From NCBI GenBank assembly GCA_903813345.2, contig CAIIXF020000012.1, forward strand, positions 23,448,184 to 23,512,183: DNA of 64,000 nucleotides, in the 5' to 3' direction. Positions 3,459-59,200 of this stretch are shown here, piece after piece; positions within the stretch are counted from its first letter, which is position 1, and every line of letters begins with the position of its first letter. Under the pieces are notes generated by a model. The model saw nothing but the letters and a program-made list of their open reading frames with translations, searched no databases and was not told the DNA's origin. Origin of the DNA: Owenia fusiformis. Taxonomy: Eukaryota; Annelida; Polychaeta; Sabellida; Oweniidae. Both the position numbers and the translations under genes were made by a program.

Positions 3459-6400
3459 ATGGCACAATCTCCACTGACAGCTGGTGTATTGAAGGTAATC
3501 AATTATTGCATTATTTAATGCTGCAAAGGGAGGTGGAGGGGAGCATGAGGGAGGGGAGGTTTAAGAAATAATCCAAGTGAAGACAATGAGTAATAAGTGT
3601 AAGCATTTATTGATCGCCATATTATTTATCTAACTAAAAGCAAAATTCTTTTACGAGTAAAAAATTTAGGAAAATGTTCAAAATTGACACAAATACCACA
3701 ATTTTCAAAATTCTGAACAGCAGTTAATGCTATCAAGTTTTCAACTCTGTGGAGATTCTTCAATGCAAAGAAGATTGCAGTTGCATATTACCTTGTTATT
3801 TCAGGACCTGTTCAATGGTTTGAAACCTAGGCGTCCAAGACTTCAAGTCTTGCAGCATGATATTGACCATAATAGAGGCCTCATGGAACTGCACAGGATT
3901 ATACTCTCAGATGGGGTCTTTTCAGACTCATGTGAGTATTGCTGAGTTGTGGCATATGAGTTGAGATGTCATATAAGTATTTATTCAGTAATTTACTCAG
4001 TAAATATGTCATGTGAGTATTTACTCATTGGTCATGTATTGTGAGTTTACTCAGTAGAGATGTGTTGTAAATATACTCAGTAGACATGTCACATGAGTAA
4101 TTACTCATTAGATAAGTCATTTGAGTATGACAGTACTTATTCAGTAGAGATCATATGTGCATATTTTTTACCTGTAGTAAAGATGTCATATTATTTTCTC
4201 ATTACAGTTTGTTAGATGTACCATGTTCTACAGCCAATTGACTTAAAAAAAACACTTTAAGGCAGCCATCTTGTTTTCTGGCAGCCATATTAGTAGTATC
4301 ATCTCACAAGTCACAGTATGTATTGTCTATGATTGTTATTTCCAGCAATACTCATTGGTCATGATTTAGTAATGGATTTGTACCACAACCCACTGCCACC
4401 TGGCTTGGTCATTGAACTGCTGCAATATGAACTCTTCCAATGGCCACCTACTGGACCCCCAACGGGGCAGTAAGTTTTTATTAAATTATTTGAAAACATT
4501 CATTTTTAAGTACATACGTATGAATGTTTTTTTGTGGGAGTTCGAATTATAAATGAATCAATGAATTGACTGATTTTCAGGCTGTTTCAATGGATTGACT
4601 GATTTTCAGGTTGTTTCAATGAATTGACTGATTTTAAAGGTCGTTTCAATGAATTGACTGATTTTCAGGTTGTTTCAATGAATTGACTGATTTTAAAGGT
4701 CGTTTCAATGAATTGACTCATTTTTAGGTTGTTTCAATGAATTGACTGATTTTCAGGTTGTTTCAGTGAATTGACTGATTTTCAGGTTGTTTCAATGAAT
4801 TGACTGATTTTCAGGTTGTTTTAATGAATTGACTGATTTCCAGGTTGTTTCAGTGAATTGACTGATTTTCAGGTTGTTTCAATGAATTGACTGATTTTCA
4901 GGTTGTTTTAATGAATTGACTGTTTTTCAGGTTGTTTCAATGAATTGACTGATTTTCAGGTTGTTTCAATGAATTGACTGTTTTTCAGGTTGTTTCAATG
5001 AATTGACTGATTTTAAAGGTTGTTTCAATGAATTGACTGATTTTCAGGTTGTTTCAATGAATTGACTGTTTTTCAGGTTCAAGCTGATGGTTGGGGATAT
5101 CAGGATACTCTTTCAACCTGGAACAATTGTTGGTAATTATTGATTTTAGTTATTTTTCCATCAACGATTGGGGAATATAAAGAATGTCTCTGTCCATCTG
5201 CAATGTATCTGTGGTTCCATTTTTAAATCCATCCATGTGTCCATCCATCCATATATTCACCCATCCATCCAAATGTTCGTCCAGCCATCCATCCATCAAT
5301 ATATTCACCCATCCATCCAAATGTTCATTCAGCTATCTGTCCATTTGTCCATCCCATCCTTTCCAAAAACCCACCCACCAATCCATGTTTTACCTTGAAA
5401 AGTTATAGAGCGATTTTGTTGATATTTATATGCCCAGTATTTTAGTACAAGTTGATGCTCAAAATTGGTTTTGAAAATGGCAACTGAGTTGAAAATGGCT
5501 GCCATTCTAGTGCCATTTTAAGTAAAATTTAGTAAACTTATTAACAATCTTTTAATGCAAAAAATAGTTTATGATGTTGATTAAGGTTTTTATGCAATTG
5601 GTTGTTGTAGGTGCACCAGGATTTGACAGACAAGGAAGACCAGCTGCATATACCTCAGCACCAAAACCAATGCCAGTCCCGAACAAGGCAGGTCCGATGA
5701 AAAATGATCCCAGAAATTTCTTTAAAGCCAATAAACCTCAAAATGATCCATCCCCAATGAATCGATCTGGGCCACCCACAGGAAAGAAAATGACAGGTCC
5801 CAAACAAACCCAACATGATCAACCAGATGGTCTGCTAGAGAGGGTTCAGAGTGCACATAGAGAGGGCAAGAGGGAGCAGATTAATAATTCCCAGAATCAG
5901 GGCGCTGTGGGTCAAAAGTCCCAAAATCAGAACCAAGACCAAAAGTCCCAAAATCAGGCTCCTGCAAGTCAAAAGTCCCAAAATCAGGCTCCTGTAGGAC
6001 AAACAGCTCAAATGCAGGCCTCTGGTGGAAAAAAGCCCAATAAGGGAAGAAGGCCTTCCATTGAAGGTACATTATATGCCTTTTGTATTCACAATTTATT
6101 GAACATTTATTAATTGAACAGAACTAGTTTCAACCCAATACAAACAACTTCATGAAATGTCTTATTGTAATTAACAAATGCATTAAACAACCTTAATTTG
6201 CAAAATGATTTATTTACTTAGAAAAAAATAAATAAATAATACCTGGTGAAGCAAGTATTTGTGATGCCACTTTGTATCTCCTTGCTAAGTTCAAGAAAAG
6301 TTTATCAATATTTTGAATTTCAGATAAAACTGATATTGTATAAGATGACATATGTTAAAGTGTTAGCTATGGTGCATTAACTTACATCATACATTGTGTT

Positions 6401-9400
6401 TTAGCTGAAGAGTTTGTACCACGCTGGAAAACTTTGAAGCTTGAAGGGAAAACAGCTGTTGAGAAAAAGGACTATGCAACTGCATTACAGCTATATTCAC
6501 AGGCAATTGAGGGTAAGCATGTTCTTAACAATTCTGCTATTATTGTTGAATTAAGATATTTTATTCATCATTTTAATAATTTAATAAATTTTAATAACGC
6601 AAATGCGAGTAGGTAGTTACCAGTTTCACCACCAGGTGGCTCGCTCGGGTCAGATAGCATGGCGGGTATCGTAGAAAGTTCCCTTTAACTTAAATTACAT
6701 CTGTTTTAGTGGTTCAATTTTTATATAGCCCTTATGTATCAAATAGTTATGCAAATTTAAGTATGTCCAGTAAAGGAAAATGTTATATGTCCAACACAAA
6801 AAAGATATTTCACTTTTTGGGATTTTGTAATATGGGGCCTATGGGGAATCAACCCGAACTAGAAGTCCCATTTTCAAAAAAGATTAAATTTTCAAAGTTG
6901 ATAAACAATTTTCGAAACCATATTTTTGAATGTATTTTTACATGTAGATTTCAAATATGACATCACTTTGACTGAATTTTAAATATTTAATGACGTAAAT
7001 CAAGATCATTTCTACCCGCATCTTGTCTATTGGGTTAAATGTTCTGGATTAAGATTATGTTTTGATAATGGTTATAATTTTAAAGTTCAAGTGGTAGAGC
7101 ACCTGACATGTAATCGGGAGGTTTTGGGTTTGATTTCCACCAGGGTGGAGTGACTTTTTCACATCAGCCCTTAGCATAGGATTTGATCCTAAGTTTTCAG
7201 ATTAATGGTTATATAATTTTAAAACATTAATTTCATACATTTTTTTAGTATACCTGTCGCTAATGAAAACTGAATATTAGCATGATTCATCTGCATCTGA
7301 TATCTTCAAATATTATGTTTGACAATAAAAGCAATCAAAAATATTCAAGGCTCTATTTCAGGAATTCATATTTCTGTTGATGTTTTAGGAGTATATATTA
7401 GTTTTCTGTTCATATTTCTATCTGTGTTTCAGGAATTCATATTTCTGTCTATATTTTATTCCATGAATTTGTAATTGTGTCTGTATTTCAGGAATCCATA
7501 TTTCTGTCGACATTTCAGATGGGTATATTTGTCTATATTTCAGGAATCCATATTTCAGATGGGTATATTTGTCTATATTTCAGGAATCCATATTTCAGAT
7601 GGGTATATTTGTCTATATTTCAGGAATACCTATGAGTGAGAGGAAAGAACGTGCAATACTTAAAAGTAATCGGAGTCTCGTGTACAGTAAGCTTGATTTC
7701 CCACATGAAGCCCTTGAAGATGCTCTTGAAAGTATTCGTTTAGATAAAGACTATAGTAAGGTAAGCAAGATTGGAGATCTTTTCTGACATATAGAGTTTG
7801 TACATGTACAAAAGATTATATGAGGGGTATACATACACAGTGTCTTCTTTCTTTCCTGAAAAAATGAACACAATTAAATTAGTATTTTCCAAGATATAGC
7901 GATTTTCCATTCACGTTTTTTTTTTGATTTTTCTAATACTAATGTTTTTGAGCCGGTGTCCAAGACATCATGTTTTACAACTAACTTACAACAGGAGCTA
8001 TACATACATTGTCTCTTCTTTCATTGCTGAAAAAATGAATACAATATTTTTGGATATTAGTATTTTCCAAAATATAAAGCGATTTATTTGGGTTGCGTTT
8101 TTTTGAATACCCTGTATTTATATTAAATGACGAAGAGCCTTAATAAAATGTATGATTTCTACTTGCAGGGATACTGGCGAGCAGCTTCAATATTCCGTCA
8201 GCTAAACCAGAAGTTTGATGCTTTAGAATGCTTCTACGATGGTTCCTGTGTGGTGAGTCATGATGATCGAACCACCAAATGTGAGTTTCTCACAGAGATT
8301 GTGGTGCTCTGCTATGAGCTGAAAGGTATGTTCATGCTTATGTGCTACTCTTCATATTCCATTATCTCTAGCATATGATTATTACACTTTTGTGATTGCT
8401 ACTACATGTAGGTGGTGGCATTTTATCACATTAATGTTTTGTTTTTGTGATGAACTATGTCCTTAGTCTCAAATATGAATATTTTACCACTTTCCAAAAC
8501 AAAACACAGAACAATTATAATCACTTGTTATGTCACCACCAGACTTATGGTGTTTGGCATCCGTAACAGCGGTTGTTGTTTGGTGTGTAAATAAATGGTG
8601 TCTGTAACAAATGCCAGGTGGTGACATTTTTCAAGTAAATGCCTTGTATTTATATTTTGTTCCTTAGACTGGAAGAGAGTGAAGAGTGGAGACATTAAAG
8701 CATCCGATCAGACTTGGTCCCTTGTCATACTGGCACTTTCACGTAACAACAAATGGCGCGTTATGGCAACATTGCTCTATGGGAAGGATGGGAAATCTGG
8801 AGGATATGCAAGAAACTTAAGTGGTCGGATAGCAAAGATTGATGCTAGAAATGTGGAACTGACTAAACTTCTGACGGTATGTTCAGTAGTTTTAAAGACA
8901 ACATATGCTTATCGTTACAATTGCATACCTATATTTTTAAACTACAGAGCACATTTGAAATTCAGATTTTTCTTCCACTGTACAAGTTGCAGTTTTGCTC
9001 AGGCTTACATGTACTTCTCCATCCTCTACTACATTTTATCACTCTCAAAGCAATTGTATGATTTGTCAACAGTTGGCCATAAAATATAAGGCCATAGTCA
9101 TTGGTCATCAAATTCAAATTGCACAGGTATTTAACTCAATAGAATAATTATGTCATCACCAGAAGTGACATATTGTTATTGTCTCCCAACTTTTGTGGAC
9201 AGTGTTTGGCATCTGTAATATGACATTTGTAACAAATTATGGCATATGTAAAAAATGGCTGGTGCTTTTTCTCTGTCATTGGGTTTTTGGGTTTGACCTT
9301 TATTTAAATCAATTTTACAAAAAGTTTAATATTTTAAGATGTCAAGTCAGATTGGCAAGTGACATTCAGATTTAATTCTTGATGCAGATGACGTCTGCTA

Positions 9401-12400
9401 ATAATGTTGCATTATGGGACATAATTTATATTATTGTTTGATTGTAGGTTCCTCAAGAGGATCAGATTGTTCAGACATTAGCAGTGAGACTTCTAGAATG
9501 TGGGGCTAGTATAAAATCCATTACTCTGACATCTGAAGATACACCTTTACATGCAGCCCTTGAGTTAGCTTTCAAAACAGGTCAGTGAAACACTAAGCAG
9601 TCAATTTTTTAAAACAATTGTTTGTCAGCTACATTCAAAGGAATCCAGAATACATGTAGAATATTAAGGAATTGTCATAGGTCGCACTGTTTATAAGGAA
9701 AAATATGATAACTTTTTGCTAATTTTGAAATCCCTTATTCTGTAAAAAATATTGACACCTCTGAAATTTCTTTCAGGTAAACCAATTCTGCTGAAACATC
9801 TCCTTGAGAAGTATTACAAAACCAATGAGGAGAAAAACACGCTTGATAAGAATGGAGACTCACTCCTTCATGTTGCTGCAAAGCAATTCCGGAAAACACC
9901 AGCTGTTAAACTTACAGGTACATTTTATTATGAGTGCTGCACTGACTTGCTTTAATGTTGGGGAGATCACTGGTTTTAAGAATTTAATGCTTTCAGTCAG
10001 TTTATTTCATGTTGCACAGACTTCAACTTACTGTATATGAGGCAGTTGGGGCAAGTGCCTTTCCAAAATTTCACAGAAAGTATTTAATGTCCTACCAAGA
10101 AGTGATTAGAGGTTATAATGACCTTCATTGTTGTGACTGGCATTTGACATTGGAAGTGGCATCATTTTAGCATTTGCAATTTTCTACACAATGGTGATAT
10201 TGGCTTTAATCCAGAAAGCTAGTAAAGTAAATCAAATAGACTTGTCTAACATTCAGATTCGACTATGACAAAACAAACTTGAGTTTTGGACATTGTGAGC
10301 TTTTATTTACAGGAATTCTCTTAGATAATGGCTTAGACCCATGCCTGAGTGATAAATGTGGTAGACTGCCACTGGACCATGTTCCCAAGGGAAATGAAAG
10401 CTTTCAACTTCTGAATAAAGCCATGCAAACACAGCAAAGTAAGTCTTAACCTATAAATTGAAATTAAGTCAGTAAAACCAGTAAAGTGGAAAACTACTGT
10501 AAGTGGATATAAATAACAGATATAAATATACCACTGTTTGTTCTATTGTGCACCATATCTACACAAGACAATTCAAGAATATTCAACCAAAATTGAGAAA
10601 ATTACTCTTAAATTAGTGGGTTTCATTTTTTGGGATCACTCTGTAATACAATAATATATGAATACTTTTTAAGGTAAAAAGAAGCCAAAGACTCCAGCTA
10701 CAGAAAGTTCTACCCGTAAGCAGGAGACGAATAACAACACAAAGCCTAAAACAAATACATGTCCATATCCAGCCAGACTACCCTCTGGAGACACCCTCAG
10801 AGCAGCTAATGAGGCCGCAGCTAAGTCTCAACAGTCAGCTAAACGTAATGAAACTTCTTCTGGTAACTTGACATTCCTATTTTTCATGTGCTGCCTATTT
10901 CAAAATTAACTCATTATTTATGTCACCACCAGGAGTGATGGTGTTTGGCAGTCAGTGGTTGGTGTTCAATGGTTGGTGTTGATCGTTTTGCATCTGAATA
11001 AATGTTCGGTGTGGGCATTTTTCATGTTAATGCCTTGTTTAGAATTATGATGTTATTGGTAGACTTTCATTTGATTTTGTGGCATGGGTATGGTCCTTTG
11101 ATAAGTCTGCATAAAAATAGATAAAAGAAATTACCATATTCCAATCCATATAAGCATTGACACTTCGTTTGTAACCCAAACTCTTAAGTACAAATGAAAA
11201 GTGTATTAAAAAGGTATGACACTTGTCTTATCTGCACATATTTAGACACAACTCATCAGTTTTAAATATCATACAAAATCATTGACTGTGTGCCATGTTC
11301 TTAATAGGTGGAGCTAGCAAGGAGAGTGAAGACCCAAATCAAATCAAAGTGAAAAGACCAGATTGTAAGTCCAGTTTACTATGAGTGAAGACTAAATTAA
11401 ATTCAACTAAATTTGTACATAAAGAATGACAAGATTTAATCAATACTTAATTTCTGTACCTACATTTAACCTAGTCTCAATATTAGTTCAATTCCACTAA
11501 AAATACACTTTCTGTCTATATACAAGTATCCATTTGAAACCAAAATCTAAAATTTTATTTTGATTTAATACAGTCTCTACACCATTCTTGGACCAGATCA
11601 GAGATGAAATTGGGGCTTTTAAACATGTCATCGCAGATTTCTTAGAGAAAGAACGACATCTGACAATGAGGCTGAATCTAGCTGGGGAGCAAATTGTGTT
11701 AAGCGATCACGGACCCATAGAAACAAAACAAGCCATCAAGGCCACTCAGAATCGTAGAATTGACATGGAACGCAATGTGAAACTTCTCAATAAGGTATAC
11801 ATAGAGAGAGAGAGGGATTGTATGTTGTGTTTCTTCAGAGGGATGATACGATATCTTCTGAGGGACCAAGAATCATTCTGAAGGACCCAATTTACAATCT
11901 GACTAGAGGATGCCTTTTTCATACCACCATGATAAAATGTCCACATTGAAATTAAGATTTTTTATCAAATTAAAAGTTGCATTGGACGAACATGTAACCA
12001 AAGAAAATAGGTCAGTCAAATTAGTGAATGAATGAGGCAAAATTATAAGTTTAAGGCCATACTACTTTAAGTCTTCATACATATTCTTTGTCTCAATGAC
12101 ATTAATGTTTCCCTGTAAAATTCTGACTTGCCTCAAATTTTCAGTTGCTGTCTCTCCATAGAACTTTGGACCAGAGAATATTCAAGGTGACATGTGGTAG
12201 TGGCAAAGACTCAATGGTGAACAATCCTCTTGGGGAAGATATGAAAGAATTATCTGAAGACTGGGAAAGGAAGTTCCATGAGGCTATGAGTCCCAGAGAT
12301 TCTGCCCTTTTGAATGAGCTACTCCAGATGAACACAAAGCACGAGATGATGCAATCTCTCATATCATGCATTGAACATTATGTATTTGCATACCAGTATG

Positions 12401-15400
12401 CTTTAATCGAACACCAAAAACAAACAAAGGATGGGCCGGTGAAATTGAAAAAAGAAACAGCTTCAGATTTCTTCCAACATGGCCAAAATTGTATGATGAT
12501 TCAGAATTATGCACTTGGTTTACAAAAATTTGTGCTGTGCTTACAAGAGGTCCGTATGAAAGACTCATCAGATGTGAAGCTGATAGAGCCTTGTTTGACA
12601 TTCATACTCGACAAAATCATTCCGGAACTTCCCAGTGAGTATTCTCTTGAGTGTCTGAATGAATGCTGTTATTTCTAACATTTCAATTCTCAGTAATTTT
12701 TTCATTTTATAAACTTTACACCCAAAACTTCTAAATTTATTTAGGCATTTCAAGGAAATAAATCGTAACTTCCAAAGGCTGTCCATATTGTTTTTTCTTT
12801 CATTACATCAAATTGTGAGAAATAACAGCTTCAAAATCTAAAAGTATAAGGTTTCCTATGTTATGGACTAAACTAATTTATATTTTATGTAAAAGCATCT
12901 TTAGATCCAGACTCTAATTCAAGGCATAACATTTAAAGCATACATGAATGTGAGATTTTAACTGAATACAGAAGCTTACAAATAAAATTGTGTATCCCCT
13001 CTCTTATAGCCTTGTTAAGATGACTCTAATTATAATACAGTGAAAGAATCATGACATCAAACCCTTGCTGTAATGAACACAGTGAATGTTTTTCTCAGCA
13101 AAAGATGTTCACTATACTCAGGTTTTACTGTACATTGTTTATTTTCCAAATTCGCAGGCATTCCAGAAGACACCAAACTGAACTTGTCCAGGCTGAAATG
13201 TGAGGAATGGATGGCAGAGAAGTTGAAGAAATTGTCTGAGGCTAACAAATGGAAAGTCATTGTGAACCTTGTCCTTGGTGGAGGTAGGTCATTATGTGTG
13301 TTCATCTTAAAAGGGAACTTTGTGGTCAAATATCAAATTTTGGGGAACCTAATTTGCAGTAGGGGCAGTGGGGGAAAAGCTATGTTAATATCCTCACCAA
13401 TATTTGTTATTAATTGTTCATTATTCTGTTCAACAAAGTTATATTAAACTCACCATCATGTGAATCAAGCTTATTAATGCAAATGCAACATTATATCATT
13501 TTAGGAAATGGTCACAAGAAGTCTGAAGGTGGACTGCTGACTGATAGTGATCTATCAACCGTCTCTCTTAGTGCCTTCATGGCAAGTGTGGACTACAAAC
13601 AAATGCCATTTGATATGAGAAACAAGTTTATACAGATCCTGATAAAGGTAGAGAACCCTTTACATATTGATTTGAGTGATGGAATATTAGTTGTACATGA
13701 ATGTCTTTGTTTTCTGTTTCAGTAATGTTGATTTCTTAATTTGAAGGAAATGATTTTTTACATTATTATGCAGGGTTTGAGCTAAGGTTCTGAGAGCAGC
13801 CAGTCAAAAGGACACTATGGATCAGTTGCTATGTTATTTATCTATACCTACTGAAAATACAACTGGACCGTATCAAAAGTGGCCTGGCAAATAATCAGTG
13901 GACCGGCCCTTACCTCAAGCCCTGCTTATGTATGTCTCACCTGGGAGAAGTGGTTGTTAAATGAACTGAGGTGTATTTTGCTAAGTTAATTGAAACTCTT
14001 GCATGATGTAGAATAGACGGCATTTTTTAATCCACAAAATGAGAAAATTATATTTATGCTAACACACAGAATGGCGCAAATCCTAATGGTACTGAGAAGT
14101 TCCGTCCAATCAGAAAAGCCCTCGAGAGTGAAGATTACAAGATGGCTGCCATGCTTCTTGATCTCGGTGCAGATCCCTCGTTCATCACTCTTCATGAAAT
14201 GGATAGTCCACTACATTATGCCCTGAAAGTTGGTCTTAACAAAATGGAAGGTAAGTAACAAATGTTCTAAATTGATAAGTGAATTCTCATTCAATCTTTG
14301 CTACATGTATATTTGCAGATATGAGATGATTTCTATTCCTATAAGTAGAATGGTCCATATTCAACAAATGTAATGATTTTTATAGAGAGGAGTAAACAAA
14401 TTGTTTCCCTTATTCTTGATCAATCAAGTATGAAAGATACTCATTTTTAGCTCACATGGTGAGCATTTGCAATGCAATCACTCACTTGTTCCAATCCTAG
14501 GAACATTACTTTTAATGTCACCACCAAAAAGTGGTAACATATTGTTATGGTCTCCGTTTTTTAGCTCACATGGTGAGCTTTTGCAATCACTCACTTGTCC
14601 GTCTGTCTGTCCATCCGTCCGTCCGTCCGTCCGTCTGTCCGTCAACAATTGTGGCACGTTTTAAAACCTCTGTCGATAGGATTCCTGTTTTAAGTTATTT
14701 CTGTTCAACATCAATACAGAAAACCCCCCTATGACTCCTGGTTCAAAAGCTCGCCTATTTTCAAAATGGCCGTCACTTTTGTCTCGCGAAATTCACTTTT
14801 AGCCCATTTCCTAGCTAACCTCTGTCGATAGGATTCCTGTTTTAAGTTATTTCTGTTCAACATCAATACAGAAAACCCCCCTATGACTCCTGGTTCAAAA
14901 GCTCGCCTATTTTCAAAATGGCGGTCACTTTTGTCTCGCGAAATTCACTTTTGGCCCATTTCCTAGCTTTACAAATAATTTCAGGTGTCCTACATTGTAA
15001 AAATCCATATCTATGTAAGGATTAGATATATGAAATAATTTTGTTACAAAAAATCAGCGAAAAATTGTATCCATTTTTTTATTTTCAGCCATTTTAGTTA
15101 ACATTGATTTGTCTATCTGACTCGCGAAATCCACTTTCTGTGGCACGTTTTAAAACCTCTGTCAATAGGATTCCTGTTTTAAGTTGTTTCTGTTCAACAT
15201 CAATTCAGAAAACTCCCCTATGACTCCTGGTTCAAAAGCTCGCCTATTTTCAAAATGGCCGCCATTTTTGTCTCGCGAAATTCACTTTTTACCCATTTCC
15301 TAGCTTTGCAAATAATTTCAAGTGTCCTACATTGTAAAAATCCATGTCAATGTAAAGAGTAGATGTATGAAATAATTTTGTTACGAAAAATCAGCGAAAA

Positions 15401-18400
15401 ATTATATCCATTTATTTATTTTCAGCCATTTTAGTTAACATTGATTTGTCCATCTGTCTCGCAAAATCCACTTTTGGACCATTTACCTTAAACCCTCTGT
15501 CGATAGGATTCCCATTTTAAGTTAATTTTGTTCAACATCAATACAAAAAACTCTCCTATGACTCTTGGTTTAAAAGCTCACCTATTTTCAAAATGGTTGC
15601 CATTCTTGTTTCGCGAAATTCACTTTTTGCCAAGTTCCTAGCTTTACAAATAATTTCAGCTGTCCTGCATTGTAAAAAGCCATGTCACTGTAAAAGGTAG
15701 TTGTATGAAATAATTTTGTTACAAAAAATCGACAAAATATTATATCCGTTTTTTTTTATTTTCAGCCATTTTAGTTAACATTGATTTGTCCATCTGTCTC
15801 GCGAAATCCTCTTTTGGACCATTTGCTTAAAACCTCTGTCGATAGGATTCCAGTTTCAAGTTATTTTTGTTCAACATCAATACAAAAAACTCCCCTATGA
15901 CTCCTGGTTCAAAAGCTTGCCTGATTTCAAAATGGTCGCCATTTTTGTCTCGCGAAATTCAATTTTGGCCCATTTTCTAGCTTTACATATAATTTCAGGT
16001 GTCTTGCATTGCAAAAAGCCATGTCACTGTAAAGAGTAGTTGTATGAAATAATTTTGTTACAAATTATTGGCAAAAAATTATATCCGTTTTTTTTTTCAG
16101 CCATTTTAATTGACTGAGAGACAGATGGCTTGAAATAATTTTGTAACAAAAAATCAGCAAAAAATTATATCCATTTTTTTCTGTTACCATGTGAGCCCAG
16201 TACCCATGGTACTAATTTTTTGTTGTGGTGGTTGGCATCTGAAACAAATTCTTAAAACTTCCAATAACTTAAAACTTCCAATAACTTAACAACTGTTTAG
16301 ACTGACTTCAATGTTTTTCAAAATTATCTACAAGTTTTCAGAAATTCAAATCTGACTTTATATTTAAGATTTGGCCTTCAATGACCTTTTCAAGGTCAAA
16401 AAAGGTTAAAAGGTCAAAAAGATTTCTTTTCAACTTGCTTCAATTTTTTTCCAAAATCATCTACAAGTTTTCAAAAGTTCAAATCTGACTTTAGATTTTG
16501 AGATTTGACCTTCAATGACCTCCTCAAGGTCTAAAAAGGTCAAAAAGGTTTTTTTCAACTTGCTTCAAATTGACCAATTTTTTCTTTCATAATTGTCTAC
16601 AAGTTTTCAAAACTTCAATTCTGACTATAGATTTGACCTTCAATGACATTCTCAAGGTCAAAAAAGATTTTACCTTCAATGACCTTCTTAAGGTCAAAAA
16701 GGTCTTTTTTCAACTTGCTTCAAATTGACCAATTTTTTTTCAAAATCATCTACAAGTTCTCAGAAATTCAAATCTGACTTAAGATTGAACTAATAATATT
16801 ATGAGCAACTAGGTGGTGACATTTTGTCACGTTAATGCCTTATCTATAAATAGAATAATCCATATCCAATCCTTAATCAAGTACCATTGACACTCCTCTA
16901 TCCTAGCTTCATAACATCCATTTTCTAACAATGCAATGATGCATGTTGTTAAAAAGGGGAGTTAACATGTCTTCTGCCTTATTTCAGGCAACTTTGATCT
17001 CCTGAAACTGCTGCTCAAACTGCATAGCCACGATTCTGAGAAGTACAAGTTCTTACATCGCAATACTCAAGACAATCATGGAAATACTCTCTTCCATATG
17101 GTAGTGAAACCTACAAAGTGTACCCATGAACTTGTAGAAGCTGTCAAACTGCTTGTTCAATATAAGGTAATGAAAACTGGATCAAGCATATGTACTATAT
17201 CTAGTACATGTATGATTTCAGTCCTGAAATGTATTAATTGTTTATGTGTGAAACCATGATAAAAGATTTCCCACACAAGTTATGAATGTCCAATATACAT
17301 TTTGAGGTAACTGAAAAACAGCCACGGAGTGTGATTTAATGTATAGAGTGGTCAAACAATGAAATCATAGGGATGTCCTATTGGCACTTAGATGTTTTTC
17401 TCTTGTACACAATTAACCTGTAGATTCTAGAGTGAAATTATGATATTAAACATATTAATATTACACAAAACAATGACTTGACCTTACATTTACTTTTCAC
17501 AACAGGTGAACCCAAAGATATTGAATAGTGAGGGCAAAGATGCGATATCCTACTTGAAGAAAAATGATCGAAGAATGCCATACACTTTAAATGCAGCCAC
17601 TCACTACTCCAAATATGTGCCAGTCAAGTTCAAAAAGAAGAAGAAAACGAAACTTGATCCCAAAACTGCTGTCTCAGAATCTGAGGTGGATGACAATCAT
17701 TCCAAGATGGCCACATCAGAATCCAATATGGCCGAATCCAATATGGCTGGAGGTGACAACCATCTTAGCCAACAATCTACATTTTCCAAAGAGAAACACA
17801 ACCAAAACTCAGGACTGTATATAAAAAGCAGTAAAGAGGAGTGTAAGAGAAACATCCAAGATTTAATCGAGTCTCTTCCTGCTATCATCCTCACTCAACA
17901 ACCATCTCCGTCCAAAAAATTTGAAAATCGTCCGCATCTGGACTCTGAATCAGATTCAAGGTCAACTACACCTGATATTGAGGTTGTAGGACAATTTGAT
18001 GAAGTTGATGATGATGGCGATGATGATGAAGACGAGGAAGATGTTGAAGCCAATGAGAAGATAGATGATGCAAATGAAGTGGATCTCAATATGCTCAAGG
18101 TTTGAATCATTTTAATACATGAGAAGCATAAAGTTTGAGTGCCAAAATCAAGACATATAGTATGTGGCAATTAACATCAATGGAATGCATTAAAAATGTG
18201 TAATTTCTCATGTTTATTGACTTTGATTTAAATGTTTGTTGACTGAAATTTAAATGTTTGTTGACTGAAATTCAAATGTTTGTTGATTATGATTTAAATG
18301 TTTGTTGACTGTGATTTAAATGTTTGTTGACTGCAATTTAAATGTTTGTTGACTGTGATTTAAATGTTTGTCGACTGAAATTGAAATGTTTTTTGACTGT

Positions 18401-44386: not shown

Positions 44387-47300
44387 TCAATTAAAGAACA
44401 CTTTGTATGATACAATGTGCCCATTGTCATAGGCGAACAGCATTTGCTCCCTGGGATTGTATGACATGGAATACATGCTCCTGAACAATGCTGGAACTGT
44501 CAGCGGGGTGAAAATCCTTTGGTTGCTCTTGGTGTCGAAGCCCCACTGGGTCTCATCTGGGCTTGGATCAGTATAGGTATTCATGGTGTACATAACACCA
44601 CAGATGAAGTACACATTGCTCACAGATTTCTTTGAGATAGTGCTATCCCATGTTTCTATCGTATGTAGGTCAGTTGGATCAAGTCGGGCTATCATGATAT
44701 TGCTGTGGGTAGCATCTGATCCATTGGTGTATGCAGCCCATAAGCCCTTTTCGTCCACGTTGATATCAATGTAGGTGTAGTCGTTTCCACGGTTGTAGTA
44801 CCTTGAATTCAAAGAACAAACTATCCCATACTTAGGAAATATGAGGATTGGGTTCTCTAGCAGTAACAATATCAATACATGTTAATAGTATATAATTATT
44901 TTAATATTGCAAATTTAACACTAGAGTCAACTTTCATTTAATTACTCACAAGTTAGTGTGGCCACCTGCAATCTTTGCCCTTGCTTTGTATGAACTTCCA
45001 TGGTCATTCCAAATATCCTTTCGCACAATTTCACCCGAATTATCCAAGTAATAGAGGTTGCTTTTGTACATCGCAATATTAGCTCCATATAGATAATCGG
45101 GGTGGATCCTGTTGATTTGGTTACCAACGTAATCTTTTAAAAGTTCTTTATGGTTATTCCATTGATGGATATAAGGATTCCCAACATGACCCTTCAGTGC
45201 AAATATGTGAGTTTTGTTTTCTTCTGAAGGAAGTGCATCTTTGAACCAAGTCCCAGTTACTCCAAAGTATTGGTGAGTCACAGGTTGTCCGATTTTAATT
45301 GGTCTCTTTGTTTCACATATTTCTAAAAGGAATAACAATAAAAGAGACATGATATTGAATATCATGTACTTGCATAATGATTTTCATATCAGGATGTTAA
45401 TATTTCTTTTGACTATTTTATATCTAGTGCTAAAACGTGCAATTGATAAATCATAACCATTTAATGTGTAAACAATTTGATATGCTATAAAAGAAAGAGC
45501 AGAGCAGATCAAAGCAACTAAATGTATGTCCTAAATCCTGGCATAGACAAATGATCAAATTCAATAATTGACCAACATTTAGAAAATATTTAACAAAATA
45601 AGATAGACTTGGGATCTTTTCCCGGCGTCGGGGTTTTATTTACCATCATCTAAGGCATCCTTTACTGAGGTCAAATCTCCAGGGAAGATATAGCCATCTT
45701 CAATGTTGTCCCCTAGGTCTCCCTTTAGCTTGGCCAATTGAGCTCTCAGCTGGGTTATCTGAATTAAAAAAAACATGTTAAAGTTTAATAATCCCAAAGA
45801 ATGAAGTTTGTTCGGGAAAATAAGACAATTCAGGTAATGAATGAAGTCAATCTAAATGCCATACTTGATTTGGGAATCATATCTTGTAGAAGATTGTTCC
45901 CTACCTCCATTGACTTTACATTATATAAGCCTTGTAAATGATTGGAACTTTTAATTATTTCTAATTCAGTCATCATGTCTCATATCAAGTTAATAATAGC
46001 CAGAGACATATAAAACAGTATGTCTCTGTTATAACCAAGCATATAGTTTGAAGAACAATTTTTCTAAATTATTAAAATTCTTATTCTCATTGATGGCGAA
46101 AACATCTTTATTATGTAATGATGTAGCAAGAAAAACTCATATAATTATTATATTTCACCTCTGCCAACAGGTCGGTGTCACTATCAACTGGATCCTGCCT
46201 AAGGAAGTGTTCAACAATAGATGACATGTTTGCGATCTCCTCCCTCATCTGTATCAATGTTGCATTGTTCTGGGCTGTTACTGGGATATGGTCAATTAAT
46301 CCAGACATGATATCCAACTCAAGTCGAAGCACTGTAAGGTTCTGAAATGTGAAATTTTAATAAATGTTGGTGTTTTAGCTCCCCTTACTGTTTACAGACA
46401 GGACATTCCCATGATTTATGTACACAGGGAGATATGCCGAGTACTATAATAGTATTCATGACATTTTAGCACTAATTGACACGAGTACTGATTTATTGCA
46501 TGTTTTAGTACTAAATGAGTACTCATGATGAGTGATAAAATAGCAGTAATTTCATTGATTTTTTAGCGCTAAATTGGTACTCATATCATGAATCATCAGT
46601 GATAAAATACTAATTTAGTACTAATTGAGTAATCGGCATATCTCCCTGTGTATGTGGTTTCCATGTGTGTCTCCTGTCTAAATACTTGAACTGAGCATAT
46701 GAAATTTAAGTAGGAAGCTGGATGGCAATTCGGACAGAGGAATAATCATTGATTGTTACACTTTTTATCTGTTTATCAAAAATTTCAGCTCAGTTTTAGG
46801 CTTGTTAATGTTTTATTCAAATGTTCCTTGTCATATTTCCAATTTCCTCAATATCTCTGCATTACTTATAGCTTTACTTAGAGGATAATTGAAGCTAACA
46901 AATACCTGAAAAAACATGCAAGAGTGGCAGTAAAAATATACCTGAACACTGACTGCCACCTTTAGGTCATCCATCTTAGAATCAACAGCATCTACTCTAG
47001 CAGTGAGTTCTACTACCTTGTCTTTCAGCCCCTTTGTGCTCAATGTCTTGAGAAATTCTGGAATGTAAATAGTATTCTGCACCTAGTATTCTGCACTTAT
47101 AATATGAGCATAAGTGTTAATATAGGGAGAACCATAGCCTTGCCCAAGTGGGTAATTTTTTACCTATCTGATCTTGAATTATTACCGGTCATAATAAAAA
47201 TCTAGAGAAAGAGAAGAGACCGACTTCGGCAAGGCTGGGAGGACCAAAACATATTCCCCAAAAATATGGTTAAAAACATCCAAAATAATAAAATCGCCCA

Positions 47301-47932: not shown

Positions 47933-47998
47933 AATTGTTGTTATTGATCTTGTCAACTTTGCTTTTCAGTAATGTTCTTGTTAACTTTCTAAATCCAA

Positions 47999-48534: not shown

Positions 48535-49240
48535 TGTTGGACCCCTGGGTCGGTCCAATTCATTCTTAAAAGTTTATCTAATTTTGTAAAGAATGACAAA
48601 CTAGTCAATTCCTTAATACTCATACTTTATTTAATAATTTTGAAGTTTAGTCCAAACAGTTACAAATTACAATACATCTTCACAATCTAAAGCCAAGCCG
48701 AAAAGGTGACTACAATGCTTTACAAGTGCTTTTTATTCTAAGACCAAGTGAGGAAAGCAATAAAATACAAAAACAATTAATCATCTTCATTACAAAAGTA
48801 TTTGAGACTCGGCCCACTGATCTTTCCTCAGTCGGCTCAGTAAGGTCAACTCGGGGACACAGTGAGTAAAACAATAAATTTGGAATAAATGACACAAGGT
48901 CAGTAAAAGTCCAGAGTGAGAAAAACAATTAAAAAGATAACAGAAATGAGTCCAGTCTCACTGAGCCCTACCTCACTCTGTTACTGGGTCAATAAAATGT
49001 CATGCAAGAACACTGAGTGAGGAAAACTATCAATCTGTCAACATCTTTTTGATGCCTGAGTTTCAACTTTTTGGGAGAAACCCATAAATCTCATAACATG
49101 ACATACTGAACTTTTAAACCCATATAGGTGAAACAAGTTGTTCCTTGACCATTCAAAACTGTCAACCAAATGATAAGTTCCATGCAGCAAATATTTAATC
49201 AAAATATAAGTTTACAGTGTGCTCCTGAAAATGTCCAACA
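48535..49240 (-). repeat. 3' LTR of the non-autonomous element
   Basis: 706 bp, TG...CA ends with 7-bp terminal inverted repeats. Near-identical to the copy at 51480-52185. Confidence 0.9.
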
Positions 49241-49253
49241 CACCACCCTCCCC
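49241..49253 (-). other. Polypurine tract of the LTR element
   Basis: Minus-strand GGGGAGGGTGGTG abuts the 3' LTR, the expected place for plus-strand priming; one T interrupts each G block. Confidence 0.65.
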
Positions 49254-51460: not shown

Positions 51461-51478
51461 CCTACCAGGCTGCCACCA
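51461..51478 (-). other. Primer-binding site of the LTR element
   Basis: Minus-strand TGGTGGCAGCCTGGTAGG starts one base after the 5' LTR. The TGG start matches the complement of a tRNA CCA end, and TGGTGGCAGC is a PBS form I know from animal gypsy elements. The cognate tRNA is not identified here. Confidence 0.65.
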
Positions 51479-51479
51479 G

Positions 51480-52185
51480 TGTTGGACCCCTAGGTCGGTC
51501 CAATTCATTCTTAAAAGTTTATCTAATTTTGTAAAGAATGACAAACTAGTCAATTCCTTAATACTCATACTTTATTTAATAATTTTGAAGTTTAGTCCAA
51601 ACAGTTACAAATTACAATACATCTTCACAATCTAAAGCCAAGCCGAAAAGGTGACTACAATGCTTTACAAGTGCTTTTTATTCTAAGACCAAGTGAGGAA
51701 AGCAATAAAATACAAAAACAATTAATCATCTTCATTACAAAAGTATTTGAGACTCGGCCCACTGATCTTTCCTCAGTCGGCTCAGTAAGGTCAACTCGGG
51801 GACACAGTGAGTAAAACAATAAATTTGGAATAAATGACACAAGGTCAGTAAAAGTCCAGAGTGAGAAAAACAATTAAAAAGATAACAGAAATGAGTCCAG
51901 TCTCACTGAGCCCTACCTCACTCTGTTACTGGGTCAATAAAATGTCATGCAAGAACACTGAGTGAGGAAAACTATCAATCTGTCAACATCTTTTTGATGC
52001 CTGAGTTTCAACTTTTTGGGAGAAACCCATAAATCTCATAACATGACATACTGAACTTTTAAACCCATATAGGTGAAACAAGTTGTTCCTTGACCATTCA
52101 AAACTGTCAACCAAATGATAAGTTCCATGCAGCAAATATTTAATCAAAATATAAGTTTACAGTGTGCTCCTGAAAATGTCCAACA
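51480..52185 (-). repeat. 5' LTR of the non-autonomous element
   Basis: 706 bp; should hold the element's promoter in the minus direction. One difference from its partner suggests a recent insertion. Confidence 0.9.
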
Positions 52186-52189
52186 ATAT

Positions 52190-53135: not shown

Positions 53136-53143
53136 TATAAAAG
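53136..53143 (+). promoter_or_regulatory. TATA box of the plus-strand olfactomedin gene
   Basis: TATAAAAG lies 75-82 bp before the ATG at 53218. TATA promoters with short 5'UTRs in both paralogues suggest strongly tissue-specific or inducible expression, which is an inference. Confidence 0.65.
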
Positions 53144-53217
53144 GGAAGGAAATTGACAGAATATTTACCATATTGCGCACCAGACATCAAACTACTTTGC
53201 TGTGACAAGAAAGAAAA

Positions 53218-56200
53218 ATGAAGTTTGTGTTTCTGTTGCTCGGTGTATGTGTAGCCTATATGGCAGCAGAGGTAAGTTTATTTGTTGCTTAATTTTACTG
53301 TAACCATGACACCCGCTGCCTGGGTGAGTTTTTCTTTGAATACCTGTTGATTTTGAAATAACTATAGTATTTTCACAAAAGGTTTGTACATGCAAGTTTC
53401 AAGATATTCTGAATTAGGCGCATTTGAATAAGGTTAAAAATTGAATAAATTGTGAATTGTTCCAGCACATTTAATAATGGTTCAAAAATGGAAACCCTGC
53501 ATTTTCATGATATCTTTGTCACTTTAACTTACTCTCTGATTTGACATGTTAGTACATCATTCAGTTTTCTACCAGACTACCATATTCCATGCCCATCTGA
53601 GTAATGGTCACAATGTTATAGCCCTTTGACCAAAATGCCCAAGGTGTGCATGTGGCAGACCCGGACAAGTTGCCAATGGCCCGACTGAATTCCTCAGCAG
53701 GTATGAGGTGAATGACAAAGATGATCTCGCTTTTGAGGTCTGTAATTATCCTGAGGTCACATAGAGACATTTTAGACGATATGAGCAGGTTTGCCTACAG
53801 TGCAATAGTGGTCATTGGATCATGTTGTGTTGTTTTCTACCCTACATTCTGATGGTCAAATGGTAGGTAGACTTGTAGAAAATTAGATGATTTACATATG
53901 TGCTAAAAACATGTATCAAGGAGTATCCTTTTAAAATGATAAAGATATGAGGAAAATATCAACAGAGTTTCCACTTTTTTACCACCCTGTCTGATTCAGG
54001 AGAATCAAAAGAAATTAACGTTGGTGAATTTTTATTTGTTCAGGATTCAGTGAGATTTAAGAGGCAGATGACCCCACCCCCAACTACTATATCTAGTACT
54101 CTCCCCACCACAATGACCGCCAAGCCACCTACAACACCCCCTATTCCAACCACCAAGATAGCAACTAATCCGGCACCAACCACAACAGCCAAGGCACCAA
54201 CAACTATTGGTCTACCAACAACGACACCAGATCCAGAAGAATACAGTGTCCAGGCAAGCAAAACTGATGACCATTGCACATGCAGCGTTCGTGGACCTGA
54301 GATAACAGAGGAATCGATTTGCTACATTGAAAGAGATTTCCAAGGTAAGCAGCATCTTTGCCGAACTTAAAACATAAAATATAGTTGATTGTTTTGCTTT
54401 ATGTACATACAGTACAACAAACCATAAAGTTATAATGTTTTAAGGCGACTAGCAGTTTACCAAATAAAACAGAAATCCAAAATGACCTTAATTATTCAAT
54501 TGTCATAACTTCATGTATGCTCTATGAGTAGTAACAGGTTTTAGTTTCTTTACTGTCTTTCTATTTCCACAGGGTTGCTCGATCTTGAAGCTACAATTTT
54601 ATCAATTGTGGCCAAGGCCGATGGACTAACAGCTAGCACAGTGGGCAATGAGTTAGTTAGCCTTGAGACACTTATTGAACATTTAGAATTGAACTACCTC
54701 AGTCAGTCTATGAATATTAATTATCAGGTACGTGGTTTTCATTACTTGTCATGTAACAATAAATGACTACAAGGAATTGCAGTATTTCAAGAGAATAAGC
54801 AGAATAAGCAGACAATGAAGAACATGACTTTGTAATGAGGGAGGTTTTTGTACCTGTTGAATTTTGGGTTTAGTTGCAACTGCAGAAAAACCTGTGTAAT
54901 TAATGTACCAGCTTTTGTTATTTAGTAAACAACTACTGTATAAATTAAAACTGATTTATCCAACCGAAAATTACATTCCTCATTTACCAGGCAAATTTCA
55001 AGTGAATTGGTTGAAAAATAATGAAATGGCTGATAAATTTCCAGAACTTAGTGATCACCCTGTATAACGTAGATTAAAATCTCATGAAAATAACTGCAAC
55101 TAGACACACCTTTTTTTTAAATTTCTACTAAACTTCAGACATATATGGATTCATTTATTTCCTGAACATGTAGGCTTTAGACGATATTAAAGTAAAACTG
55201 CAACAACTCACATTTCTTGTGGAAAACCTTGATGTTAACAAGACAACAGAGGCCCTAGTGAACCAGATGACGGCTGATATGTGGATCGCTTCAGAAGAGG
55301 TGGATGGACGCTTGGAACTCAACAGTGTTTACATTCATAAGGATTTAGTGAACCAAGTAATAATTTTAATAGTTTTTTGTTATTTAATTTTCTGTTATAT
55401 GTGTTCCTCTTTATGATGATATGCTATATACATTTATTTTACTCATCTTAAACAAGATGATCTCTTCTATTGGATATATAAATGTGAACTTTTATATGCT
55501 CCATGCAAATGTGCAAAGCTTACAAAAATATTTCAAATTACTGACTAGCATTCCTTATTTTTGGAAATTCCCACTAAGAAGAGTATTGAAACTTTTGGCA
55601 ACAACATAAGTCTTTACTCTTTTTGTGAATACATATTGGTAATAATATATTGAGTTGTTTTATGATTTTTCTTGACTATAGAGTCCCATACACAACAAAT
55701 AATTTCCTTTAGATTTGAACCTGGAGACCAGGGCAGCTATAGAATCTGTCCCATGGTCTCATACAGAACTGATTTATTTGTTTCTGTCTTCAAGTCTAGA
55801 GATTTTGAGCTGAACCCCTTGTTTCTCCTAGATTGCAGACCAGGGGACCAAGGCATCTGGCTGTTCTGTATTTTCATACAACACTGAAATCTTTGTCTCT
55901 CCTAGATTGCAGACCAGGGAACAAAGGCAGCTGGCTGTTCTGTATTTTCATACAACACTGAAATCTTTGTTTCTCCTAGATTGCAGACCAGGGGACCAAG
56001 GCAGCTGACTGCTCAATATTTTCATACAACACTGAAATCTTTGTTTCTCCTAGATTGCAGACCAGGGGACAAAGGCAGCTGGCTGTTCTGTATTTTCATA
56101 CAACACTGAAATCTTTGTTTCTCCTAGATTGCAGACCAGGGGACCGAGGCATCTGGCTGTTCAATATTTTCATACAACACTGAAATCTTTGTTTCTCCTA

Positions 56201-59200
56201 GATTGCAGACCAGGGGACCAAGGCATCTGGCTGTTCAATATTTTCATACAACACTGAAATCTTTGTTTCTCCTAGATTGCAGACCAGGGGACAAAGGCAG
56301 CTGGCTGTTCTGTATTTTCATACAACACTGAAATCTTTGTTTCTCCTAGATTTATTTTTTTATTTTTTATTAATTTATTGTAATCACTTTTACATAATTG
56401 CAGACCAGGGGACCAAGGCAGCTGGCTGTTCTATATTTTCATACAACACTGAAATCTTTGTTTCTCCTAGATTGCAGACCAGGGGACCGAGGCATCTGGC
56501 TGTTCAATATTTTCATACAACACTGAATCTTTGTTTTTCCTAGATTGCAAACTAGGGGACCAAGGCAGCTGACTGCTCAATATTTTCATACAACACTGAA
56601 ATTTTTGTTTCTCCTAGATTGCAGACCAGGGGAGAAAGGCAGCTGGCTGTTCTATATTTTCATACAACACTGAAATCTTTGTTTCTCCTAGATTGCAGAC
56701 CAGGGGACCAAGGCAGCTGGCTGTTCTATATTTTCATACAACACTGAAATCTTTGTTTCTCCTAGATTGCAGACCAGAGGACCAAGGCAGCTGACTGCTC
56801 AATATTTTCATACAACACTGAAATTTTTGTTTCTCCTAGATTGCAGACCAGGGGAGAAAGGCAGCTGGCTGTTCTGTATTTTCATACAACACTGAAATCT
56901 TTGTTTCTCCTAGATTGCAGACCAGGGAACAAAGGCAGCTGGCTGTACTGTATTTTCATACAACACTGAAATCTTTGTTTCTCCTAGATTTTTTTTTTTT
57001 TTATTAATTTATTGCAATCACTTTTACATAATTGCAGACCAGGGGACCAAGGCAGCTGGCTGTTCTATATTTTCATACAATACTGAACTCTTTGTTTCTC
57101 CTAGATTGCAGACCGGGGACAAAGGCAGCTGGCTGTTCTATATTTTCATACAATACTGAACTCTTTATTTCTCCTAGATTGCAGACCAGGGAACCAAGGC
57201 AGCAGGCTGTTCTATATTTTCATACAATGCTGAATCTTTGCTTCTCCTAGATTGCAGACCAGGGACCAATGCAGCTGGCTGTTCTATATTTCCATACAAC
57301 ACTGAAATCTTTGTTTCTCCTAGATTGCAGACCGGGGACCAAGGCAGCTGACTGCTCAATATTGTCATACAGCACTGACATCTTTGTTTCTCCTAGATTG
57401 CAGACCAGGGGACAAAGGCAGCTGGCTGTTCTGTATTTTCATACAACACTGAAATCTTTGTTTCTCCTAGATTGCAGACCAGGGGACTAAGGCAGCTGAC
57501 TGTTCTGTATTTTCATACAACACTGAAATCTTTGTTTCTCCTAGATTACAGACCAGGGAACAAAGGCAGCTGACTGTTCTGTATTTTCATACAACACTGA
57601 AATCGTTGTTTCTCCTAGATTGCAGACCAGGGGACTAAGGCATCTGGCTGTTCTATATTTTCATACAATACTGAATCTTTGTTTCTCCTAGATTGCAGAC
57701 CAGGGGACCAATGCAGCTGGCTGTTCTATATTTTCATACAACACTGAAATCTTTGTTTCTCCTAGATTGCAGACCAGGGGACCGAGGCATCTGGCTGTTC
57801 AATATTTTCATACAACACTGAAATCTTTGTTTCTCCTAGATTGCAGACCAGGGGACAAAGGCAGCTGGCTGTTCAATATTTTCATACAATACTGAATCTT
57901 TGTTTCTCCTAGATTGCAGACCAGGGGACCAAGGCATCTGGCTGTTTTGTATTTTCATACAACACTGAAATCTTTGTTTCTCCTAGATTACAGACCAGGG
58001 AACAAAGGCAGCTGACTGTTCTGTATTTTCATACAACACTGAAATCGTTGTTTCTCCTAGATTGCAGACCAGGGGACTAAGGCATCTGGCTGTTCAATAT
58101 TTTCATACAACACTGAAATCTTTGTTTCTCCTAGATTACAGACCAGGGAACAAAGGCAGCTGACTGTTCTGTATTTTCATACAACACTGAAATCGTTGTT
58201 TCTCATAGATTACAGACCAAGGGACCAAGCCAGCTGGCTGTTCTATATTTTCATACAATACTGAATCTTTGTCTCTCCTAGATTGCAGACCAGGGGACCA
58301 AGGCAGTTGGCTGTTTTATATTTTCATACAACACTGAAATCTTTGTCTCTCCTAGATTGCAGACCAGGGGACCAATGCAGCTGGCTGTTTCATATTTTCA
58401 TACAATACTGAATCTTTGTTTCACGTAGATTGCAGACTAGTAGACCAAGGCAGCTGGCTGTTCTATATTTCTTACAACACTGCAATCTTTGTTTCTCATA
58501 GACTGCAGAACTGGAGACCAATGGAGCTAGTTGTTCTATATTTTCATACAATACCGAATCTTTGTTTCTCCTAGATTGAAGACCATGCATGGAACCAATG
58601 CAGCTGGCTGTTCTATATTTTCTTACAACACTGCTATCTTTGTATCTCCTAAATTGCAGAACCGGAAACCAATGAAGCTGGCTATATTCAATATTTCCAT
58701 ACAACATTGAACTCTTTGTCTCTTCTAGATTGCAGACCTGGAGACCAAGGCAGCTGGCTGTTCCATAGGTGGCGAGAGCATTGATGAAATAGGGGCATCA
58801 TATTTCCCAGGAGATTCAAGACCCATAGGAGATCTTGATCAAAGTATGTATAATTAAGGTAGTATATACCTATAACATGAAGTTACTAAAGTATAATACT
58901 AAAGTAGTCTTTTCAAAGCATCTAAAAGACAATCCAAGACTAATACAATGGAGCAAATCAAGAGCCATATTATAATTTACACTTATGTTATGATTGACAA
59001 ATGTCTGTATGCTCTAATTTTTCAGGCTTCTGTGAGCGGAACACATTTACAGGCGTTGGTTGGCCAATGACACACACCTCTGAGTCTGGAGTGGGGTGGT
59101 GGATGAAAGACCCAATACCCGACTCTCCTGAGAATCGCACTGCCATCTATTATGTGGCCGGACATAGTGGAGCTCTGTACATGTACAAGTGGAACAACTA

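What the first reader, a model, noticed from the sequence alone, without database searches (positions are those of the whole stretch)
3929..58729. Seven introns carry tandem arrays built on a splice site of the adjoining exon
In exons 4, 7, 22, 35 and 39 of the TRANK1-like gene and exon 5 of the plus-strand olfactomedin gene, the repeat unit contains the 3' splice site, in four cases with the first bases of the exon, and the array ends exactly at the real junction. At exon 2 the unit contains the 5' splice site. Unit lengths differ (22 to 98 bp) and so do sequences, so this is not one repeat family but a recurrent process acting on junctions. Tandem duplication of AG/GT-containing segments is a proposed route to new introns; here we may see many intermediates. 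It could also alter splicing through decoy sites.
Basis: partly seen in the sequence, partly recalled or inferred. Interest (0 to 1): 0.88.

Follow-up and report, generated by a model that had tools for sequence, protein, structure and literature searches.

The report
Tandem repeats spanning splice junctions ("mirages")
In a marine worm (Owenia), several introns carry tandem copies of a short piece that includes the exon's splice site, a phenomenon already named in amphioxus; the evidence points to tolerated repeat growth rather than the birth of new introns.

Summary
The arrays are real. A 45-exon TRANK1-like model (identical to the public Owenia fusiformis protein except at one donor) and an olfactomedin gene show six tandem arrays whose unit spans a true 3' splice site (exons 4, 7, 22, 35, 39; olfactomedin exon 5); the exon 2 donor case is weaker. 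They are not one repeat family. They match "mirages", exon/intron-boundary minisatellites described in amphioxus. Junction-spanning arrays exceed chance in this window (7 of 16 arrays, 2.0 expected). In 12 myosin loci of the same genome they occur, but without excess (2 of 18, 2.4 expected). A kinesin gene carries 18 copies of a 159-bp acceptor-plus-exon unit. Best reading: a minisatellite-rich annelid genome where duplications that happen to span junctions are tolerated and grow. New here: the lineage, the density, and one intron that is about 200 bp in paralogues but 3.4 kb here.

The parts
3459..40888 (+). TRANK1-like helicase/ankyrin gene, 45 exons, 3,587 aa (CDS)
   Evidence: spliced model without internal stops; public Owenia fusiformis protein P0002 identical except at the exon 28 donor
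3932..4146 (+). degenerate array (about 26-28 bp unit) starting at the exon 2 donor; weaker case
   Evidence: TRF 3991-4128; copies from 3928 on; donor self-similarity 26, control maximum 30
4558..5079 (+). 29-bp unit x 18 spanning the exon 4 acceptor at 5077; 17 decoys, all AG
7351..7627 (+). older copies of about 27 bp and a perfect 40-bp x 2.9 array spanning the exon 7 acceptor at 7624; 8 decoy positions, 7 AG
18210..18420 (+). 22-bp unit x 9.6 spanning the exon 22 acceptor at 18408; all 8 upstream positions examined read AA instead of AG
31491..31624 (+). 66-bp unit x 2 spanning the exon 35 acceptor at 31604 (21 exon bases)
33893..34260 (+). 98-bp (86-bp) unit x 4 spanning the exon 39 acceptor at 34192 (69 exon bases)
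53218..64000 (+). plus-strand olfactomedin gene, exons 1-8 seen (exon 8 runs off the window)
   Evidence: spliced model; Owenia protein P0001 90% identical over 54%
55819..58767 (+). 74-bp unit, 41 copies incl. the true one, spanning the olfactomedin exon 5 acceptor at 58729; 40 decoy positions, 37 AG
55686..55785 (+). diverged relic copy at the 5' side of the olfactomedin array; keeps the exon's CTGGAGACC, which the consensus of the central copies has lost
   Evidence: local alignments
45759..46158 (-). homologous intron 4 of the minus-strand olfactomedin paralogue, no TRF array
   Evidence: exon 4 183 bp and exon 5 115 bp, same phases as in the plus gene; no TRF row there

Best explanation
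These are mirage-type minisatellites. A short segment that happened to include a splice junction was tandemly duplicated at an already existing intron; the extra copies then multiplied by unequal exchange or slippage. All copies but one lie in the intron. The spliceosome still uses the authentic junction, so the arrays are tolerated, drift and lengthen introns. Shown: junction-spanning units, copy divergence pattern of one array, one intron older than its array, recurrence in unrelated genes of the same genome. Inferred: unequal exchange/slippage as the growth step, correct splicing in the animal, and neutrality (no clear sign of selection on the decoys was found, which is not proof).
For: Six acceptor arrays far above control. 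Units local, not shared between sites in the sequence examined. Exon share of the unit 0.10, 0.10, 0.59, 0.32, 0.70, 0.53, compatible with random breakpoints (KS p 0.57, n=6). Olfactomedin array: central copies 0.91-1.00 like the consensus, first copy 0.78, last three decoys 0.81-0.85 (36 of 40 decoys examined), the pattern of homogenised centre and excluded edges reported for amphioxus BflGb6 (PMC3087553, passages). Intron 4 is 201, 195 and 212 bp in three paralogues, each with two diverged acceptor copies, but 3,372 bp with 41 copies in the window gene. Recurrence: myosin loci with donor arrays (34 bp x 4 at a homology-validated exon; 41 bp x 4 at a predicted one) and a 2-copy acceptor case at a predicted exon; kinesin with 18 copies about 159 bp apart. 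Public protein uses the authentic junctions. Myosin sample without excess: 2 of 18, 2.40 expected.
Against: In the window itself founding units span junctions more often than random placement gives: 7 of 16 arrays with unit >=20, 2.04 expected, P 0.0014, and 6 of 58 acceptors against 0 clear cases of 54 validated myosin acceptors (Fisher p 0.028); pooled with the myosin sample 9 of 34, 4.45 expected, P 0.023. So a modest real junction preference is not excluded. In the 74-bp array the AG columns are among the best-conserved quarter of intron columns, and in the 29-bp array all 17 decoys keep AG, so constraint on them is not excluded either. No RNA reads were seen.
Confidence: 0.72

Rival explanations
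1. A mutational process prefers splice junctions, above all 3' splice sites (for example breaks or slippage at polypyrimidine tracts or at paused, R-loop-forming intron ends), so arrays are born there more often than elsewhere.
For: Window: 6 of 11 non-dispersed arrays with unit >=20 span an acceptor, 0.54 expected, P 3.4e-6; with all 29 non-coding TRF arrays 7, 1.20 expected, P 8e-5; introns only, 6 of 10, 0.66 expected, P 9e-6. The narrow class was my own, made after seeing the data.
Against: 12 myosin loci elsewhere in the genome: 2 of 18, 2.40 expected, P 0.72; validated exons only 1, 1.11 expected. There the clear cases at validated exons are donors, so the acceptor bias does not replicate. 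By coverage there is no excess: arrays fill 13.5% of intronic bases but touch 6 of 115 junctions, and 122 of 626 probes set inside introns reach 36 (60 of them in one intron) against 6 of 58 acceptors and 0 of 57 donors. The window was picked because it showed the pattern.
Confidence: 0.2
2. Junction arrays are not born more often but survive longer: deletions remove arrays in the middle of introns, while exon-adjacent ones are shielded because a deletion reaching the exon is harmful.
For: Would give an excess near exons with random breakpoints, as in the window. Not tested directly.
Against: No excess in the myosin sample. No decayed intermediates at the other 52 acceptors of the window: best 24 against a control maximum of 28, although relics exist in olfactomedin paralogues.
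Confidence: 0.15
3. The arrays work: rows of decoy acceptors regulate the gene by unproductive splicing or add protein diversity.
For: 65 of 77 decoy positions keep AG; in exon 39 all three decoys score as high as the true site. AG columns of the 74-bp array lie in the best-conserved quarter of intron columns.
Against: Of 65 AG decoys 60 lead to a stop inside the extension, 3 shift the frame, 2 stay open, so hardly any diversity. Exon 22's array lacks AG in all 8 positions examined. Arrays do not sit at weaker or stronger acceptors (leave-one-out p 0.99). Copy number differs widely between paralogues.
Confidence: 0.07
4. The introns are young and were made by tandem duplication of AG/GT-containing exon pieces; the arrays are intermediates of intron gain.
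For: Tandem genomic duplication is a published route to introns (PMC4974935, seen as search listing with start of abstract); mirages were proposed as a source of new introns (PMC3087553, passages).
Against: Donor side and acceptor side of the six introns are no more alike (12-15) than unrelated pairs (median 13, 99% 21). Olfactomedin intron 4 is shared by the distant minus-strand paralogue (exons of 183 and 115 bp, same phases) and by three near paralogues. The age of the five TRANK1-like introns was not tested against relatives.
Confidence: 0.05

Closest known systems
[quoted passage not shown] PMC3087553 and PMC3902484, passages read; the original Adh paper is not held)
   Same: Unit spans an exon-intron boundary at either end; unit length differs by locus; many copies carry AG/GT signals; homogenised centre with divergent edges (one array tested); authentic junction annotated as the one used
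   Different: Annelid host instead of a cephalochordate; up to 41 copies; six clear cases in 64 kb; an array whose examined copies have all lost AG; one intron's length compared across paralogues
Intron gain by tandem genomic duplication (PMC4974935, search listing with start of abstract only)
   Same: Tandem duplication of segments with splice signals
   Different: No donor/acceptor homology in the six introns; one intron shown to be older than its array
Human interferon-induced 6-16 (IFI6) minisatellite with repeated splice donors (recalled; no paper describing it was read; searches are listings only)
   Same: Minisatellite unit containing a splice site at an exon end (recalled)
   Different: Donor side, single locus (recalled)

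Membership tests
mirage (exon/intron-boundary minisatellite) | tandem repeat unit spans an exon-intron boundary | tested here: met
   six acceptors; exon 2 donor weaker
mirage (exon/intron-boundary minisatellite) | many, not all, copies carry the splice signal | tested here: met
   AG at 65 of 77 decoy positions, 0 of 8 in exon 22
mirage (exon/intron-boundary minisatellite) | regular splicing is not disturbed | tested here: inconclusive
   public protein P0002 uses the authentic junctions of exons 2, 4, 7, 22, 35 and 39; no reads or RT-PCR
mirage (exon/intron-boundary minisatellite) | central homogenisation, edges excluded | tested here: met
   74-bp array only: edges 0.78-0.89, centre 0.91-1.00; the 29-bp array shows no such gradient
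mirage (exon/intron-boundary minisatellite) | copy number differs between haplotypes, somatic instability | not testable with these tools
   one assembly only; copy number differs between paralogues
intron gain by tandem duplication | donor-side and acceptor-side sequences of the intron are homologous | tested here: not met
   six introns score 12-15; control 99% is 21
intron gain by tandem duplication | intron absent from relatives | tested here: not met
   olfactomedin intron 4 only: present in four paralogues; not tested for the TRANK1-like introns
transposed/dispersed repeat family | unit found at unrelated sites | tested here: not met
   blastn of 7 units against window plus 299,635 bases: own site only, plus olfactomedin paralogues; a whole-genome DNA search did not complete

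The most novel reading that the evidence does not exclude
Splice junctions of this annelid are preferred birthplaces of minisatellites, so that junction-spanning arrays form a genome-wide engine of intron lengthening that has run in lineages as far apart as annelids and amphioxus; the window's excess is real and the myosin genes are a cold class of genes.
Probability: 0.2. Interest if true: 0.75.

Novelty: new member of a known kind. Interest (0 to 1): 0.42.

Why it matters
In the held papers, mirages turned up only in amphioxus. An annelid with several in one gene, plus cases in myosin and kinesin genes, suggests that they are what a minisatellite-rich genome produces, not a cephalochordate quirk. 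It gives a natural test bed for how the spliceosome passes over up to 40 close copies of an acceptor, and a likely route by which introns lengthen. It also warns gene predictors: repeat arrays can be taken for exons.

Tried and rejected
Weak-acceptor idea: with a matrix trained without the array acceptors four of six ranked in the weakest ten of 58; leave-one-out removed this (p 0.99), so it was dropped. Ab initio gene finding on the 200 kb beside the window: predictions fell into satellite-like arrays (21 of 203 predicted acceptors and 20 of 203 donors at >=36) and were not used. First gene-finder settings over-predicted (130 exons predicted where 53 are true). In cross-validation exon penalty -11 found 40 of 44 acceptors with 2 false, penalty -9 found 39 with 10 false; in the myosin loci I used -9 with a still lower site threshold and cheaper open ends, which was not cross-validated as such, so counts there are given for homology-validated exons too. 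My early reading that the olfactomedin array arose after the paralogue split was corrected: diverged copies are shared by the three near paralogues. Column test: the figure for the 29-bp array (three quarters of intron columns at least as conserved as AG) is lowered by the alignment of copies ending AAAG; by position all 17 keep AG, so this array gives no evidence that AG is free to change. One search also gave a pooled test with the narrow window class (9 of 29, 3.54 expected, P 0.005); the like-for-like one is used. Script failures: error; printed, then failed on saving.

Rows dropped: in the narrow count I left out microsatellite-like, short-unit (<20) and dispersed-repeat arrays; counts with them are given beside it. 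Four TRF arrays inside coding exons were left out of all array counts. Myosin: 92 matches were listed; 54 of them lie in the 12 loci fetched; I had asked for 20 regions, and the other 8 and the row of repeated exons at C9:37986009-37994334 were not fetched. With units >=14 the myosin count is 3 of 26, 2.93 expected. Four of 40 decoy copies of the 74-bp array with an inserted T-rich piece were left out. Exon 22 decoy positions were set by the 22-bp period. Kinesin: 18 copies come from the match table; three were read as letters (L041). A whole-genome DNA search for the 98-bp and 66-bp units and a dynein family search were asked for and never answered.
Full report
What and where. The window is from the annelid Owenia fusiformis. 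The spliced 3,587-residue TRANK1-like protein read from 45 exons matches the public protein P0002, named 'unnamed protein product [Owenia fusiformis]', in 3,555 of 3,587 columns; the only difference is in exon 28, where my model uses a GC donor. The genome held as G000 places the window at C12:23448184-23512183, in a contig of 36,706,527 bases, the same length as the contig listed for P0001 and P0002. The paper on the Owenia genome (PMC9977687, passages only) says that 31,678 of 31,903 transcripts have RNA-seq support; that P0002 stems from that annotation is my inference.

The observation. TRF and the gene model give six arrays whose unit spans an acceptor: exon 4 (29 bp x 18), exon 7 (40 bp x 2.9 on top of older copies of about 27 bp), exon 22 (22 bp x 9.6), exon 35 (66 bp x 2), exon 39 (98 bp x 4) and exon 5 of the plus-strand olfactomedin gene (74 bp, 41 copies). 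The exon 2 donor array is degenerate and only probable. A probe of 45 bases across each of 58 acceptors, compared with its own upstream intron, gives 48-90 for these six, 24 or less for the other 52, and at most 28 for 2,550 mismatched pairs with array junctions left out. At the 57 donors the best is exon 2 with 26 (control maximum 30). The array ends do not lie at the junction: they reach 3 to 69 bases into the exon, and the exon share of the unit is compatible with an even spread (KS p 0.57 with n=6).

Chance, inside the window. Placing units of the same length at random outside exons, 16 arrays with unit >=20 should give 2.04 spanning a junction; 7 do (P 0.0014; 6 without the weak donor, P 0.008). 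For acceptors alone the narrow class gives 6 of 11 with 0.54 expected (P 3.4e-6) and all 29 non-coding arrays 7 with 1.20 expected (P 8e-5). Against this, arrays of the narrow class fill 13.5% of intronic bases but touch only 6 of 115 junctions, and of 626 probes set inside introns 122 reach a score of 36 (60 of them in the olfactomedin intron 4) against 6 of 58 acceptors and 0 of 57 donors. The excess is one of founding events, not of coverage.

Chance, outside the window. Myosin-head exons (PF00063), a family chosen without regard to repeats, gave 92 exon matches. In them 54 predicted exons lie in frame on such a match. Of these 54 validated acceptors none reached 36 (one at 31); of 54 validated donors two did (68 and 48); among junctions of the other predicted exons one acceptor of 76 and one donor of 64 did. 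Cases read as letters: L030, 34 bp x 4 starting at a donor; L038, 41 bp x 4 with about 30 exon bases and a GTATGT donor; L031, degenerate copies of a donor; L032, a doubled acceptor. So such arrays recur elsewhere in the genome. But 2 of 18 arrays with unit >=20 span a junction and 2.40 are expected (P 0.72); with validated exons only, 1 and 1.11. Pooled with the window, like for like: 9 of 34, 4.45 expected, P 0.023; without the weak donor 8, P 0.062. Junction rates of window and sample do not differ significantly (6 of 115 against 2 of 108, p 0.28); acceptor rates taken alone do (6 of 58 against 0 of 54, p 0.028).

A striking further case came from the kinesin family: 18 of the 144 matches hit the same 38 motor positions at C2:23266359-23269174, 158 or 159 bases apart, none with a stop. 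The three copies read (L041) consist of an acceptor-like CCATAG followed by the exon piece [42 protein letters not shown]; in the two complete ones VAL and an in-frame TAA follow. I take it as an acceptor mirage with about 120 exon bases per unit; which copy is the true exon was not determined.

Do the arrays make introns? No sign of it. For none of the six introns do donor and acceptor sides resemble each other (12-15; unrelated pairs median 13, 99% 21). Olfactomedin intron 4 is at the same place and phase in the distant minus-strand paralogue, between exons of 183 and 115 bp as in the plus gene, and in three close paralogues about 29 to 70 kb beyond the window's end, where it is 201, 195 and 212 bp long. 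These three carry two diverged acceptor copies each, so the first duplications look older than the paralogues, while 41 copies and 3,372 bp are found only in the window gene; that this is growth there and not loss in three paralogues is the simpler inference. A relic at the 5' side of the array keeps the exon's own CTGGAGACC, which the central consensus has lost, so the exon was the likely source. The age of the TRANK1-like introns was not tested.

Do the copies work? Of 77 decoy positions 65 read AG; in the exon 22 array all eight examined read AA. Using a decoy would hit a stop within the extension in 60 of 65 cases, shift the frame in 3 and stay open in 2. In the 74-bp array the AG columns lie in the best-conserved quarter of intron columns, no more than many others; the 29-bp array keeps AG in 17 of 17. 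Acceptors with arrays are neither weak nor strong. The public protein uses the authentic sites. Neutral growth is the simplest reading, but weak constraint on decoys is not excluded.

What is known. [quoted passage not shown] The globin paper also proposed them as a source of new introns. In the held library, searches on minisatellites or tandem repeats with exon/intron or splice terms returned no such case in an annelid or other animal outside amphioxus; most subscription papers are not held, so this is no proof that none is in print. I therefore file the arrays as mirages in a new lineage, with high density and with one intron whose length can be compared across paralogues. The excess at junctions in this window stays as an open, modest anomaly.

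Noticed in passing
window 27454-27575: Exon 28 of the TRANK1-like gene is best ended at a GC donor (AACAG|GCAAGT); the public protein P0002 lacks 32 residues there.
   Followed up: partly
window 48535-49240 and 51480-52185: Two nearly identical direct repeats, start-to-start spacing 2,945 (one search shows 300 nt of them; by eye they run on to about 700), look like the ends of an LTR-type element.
   Followed up: partly
window 36586-36972: 29-bp x 13.5 array in intron 40, 43 bp short of the exon 41 acceptor; its reverse strand reads TTTTGGTGAGTAA, a donor-like motif; whether an antisense gene exists was not examined.
   Followed up: no
window 30988-31019: A 16-bp x 2 repeat spans the exon 34 acceptor; too short to tell from chance.
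   Followed up: partly
G000:C2:23266359-23269174 (L041 holds 23268730-23269290): Kinesin gene with 18 tandem copies, about 159 bp apart, of an acceptor-like site plus about 120 exon bases.
   Followed up: partly
G000:C9:37986009-37994334: A row of at least 11 matches to one myosin-head exon (model positions about 25-83) at irregular spacing, perhaps mutually exclusive exons of a muscle myosin gene.
   Followed up: no
G000:C12 about 23615000-23634000 (within L025-L027): Satellite-like arrays, unit roughly 330 bp by the spacing of predicted sites, that an ab initio gene finder reads as many exons.
   Followed up: no
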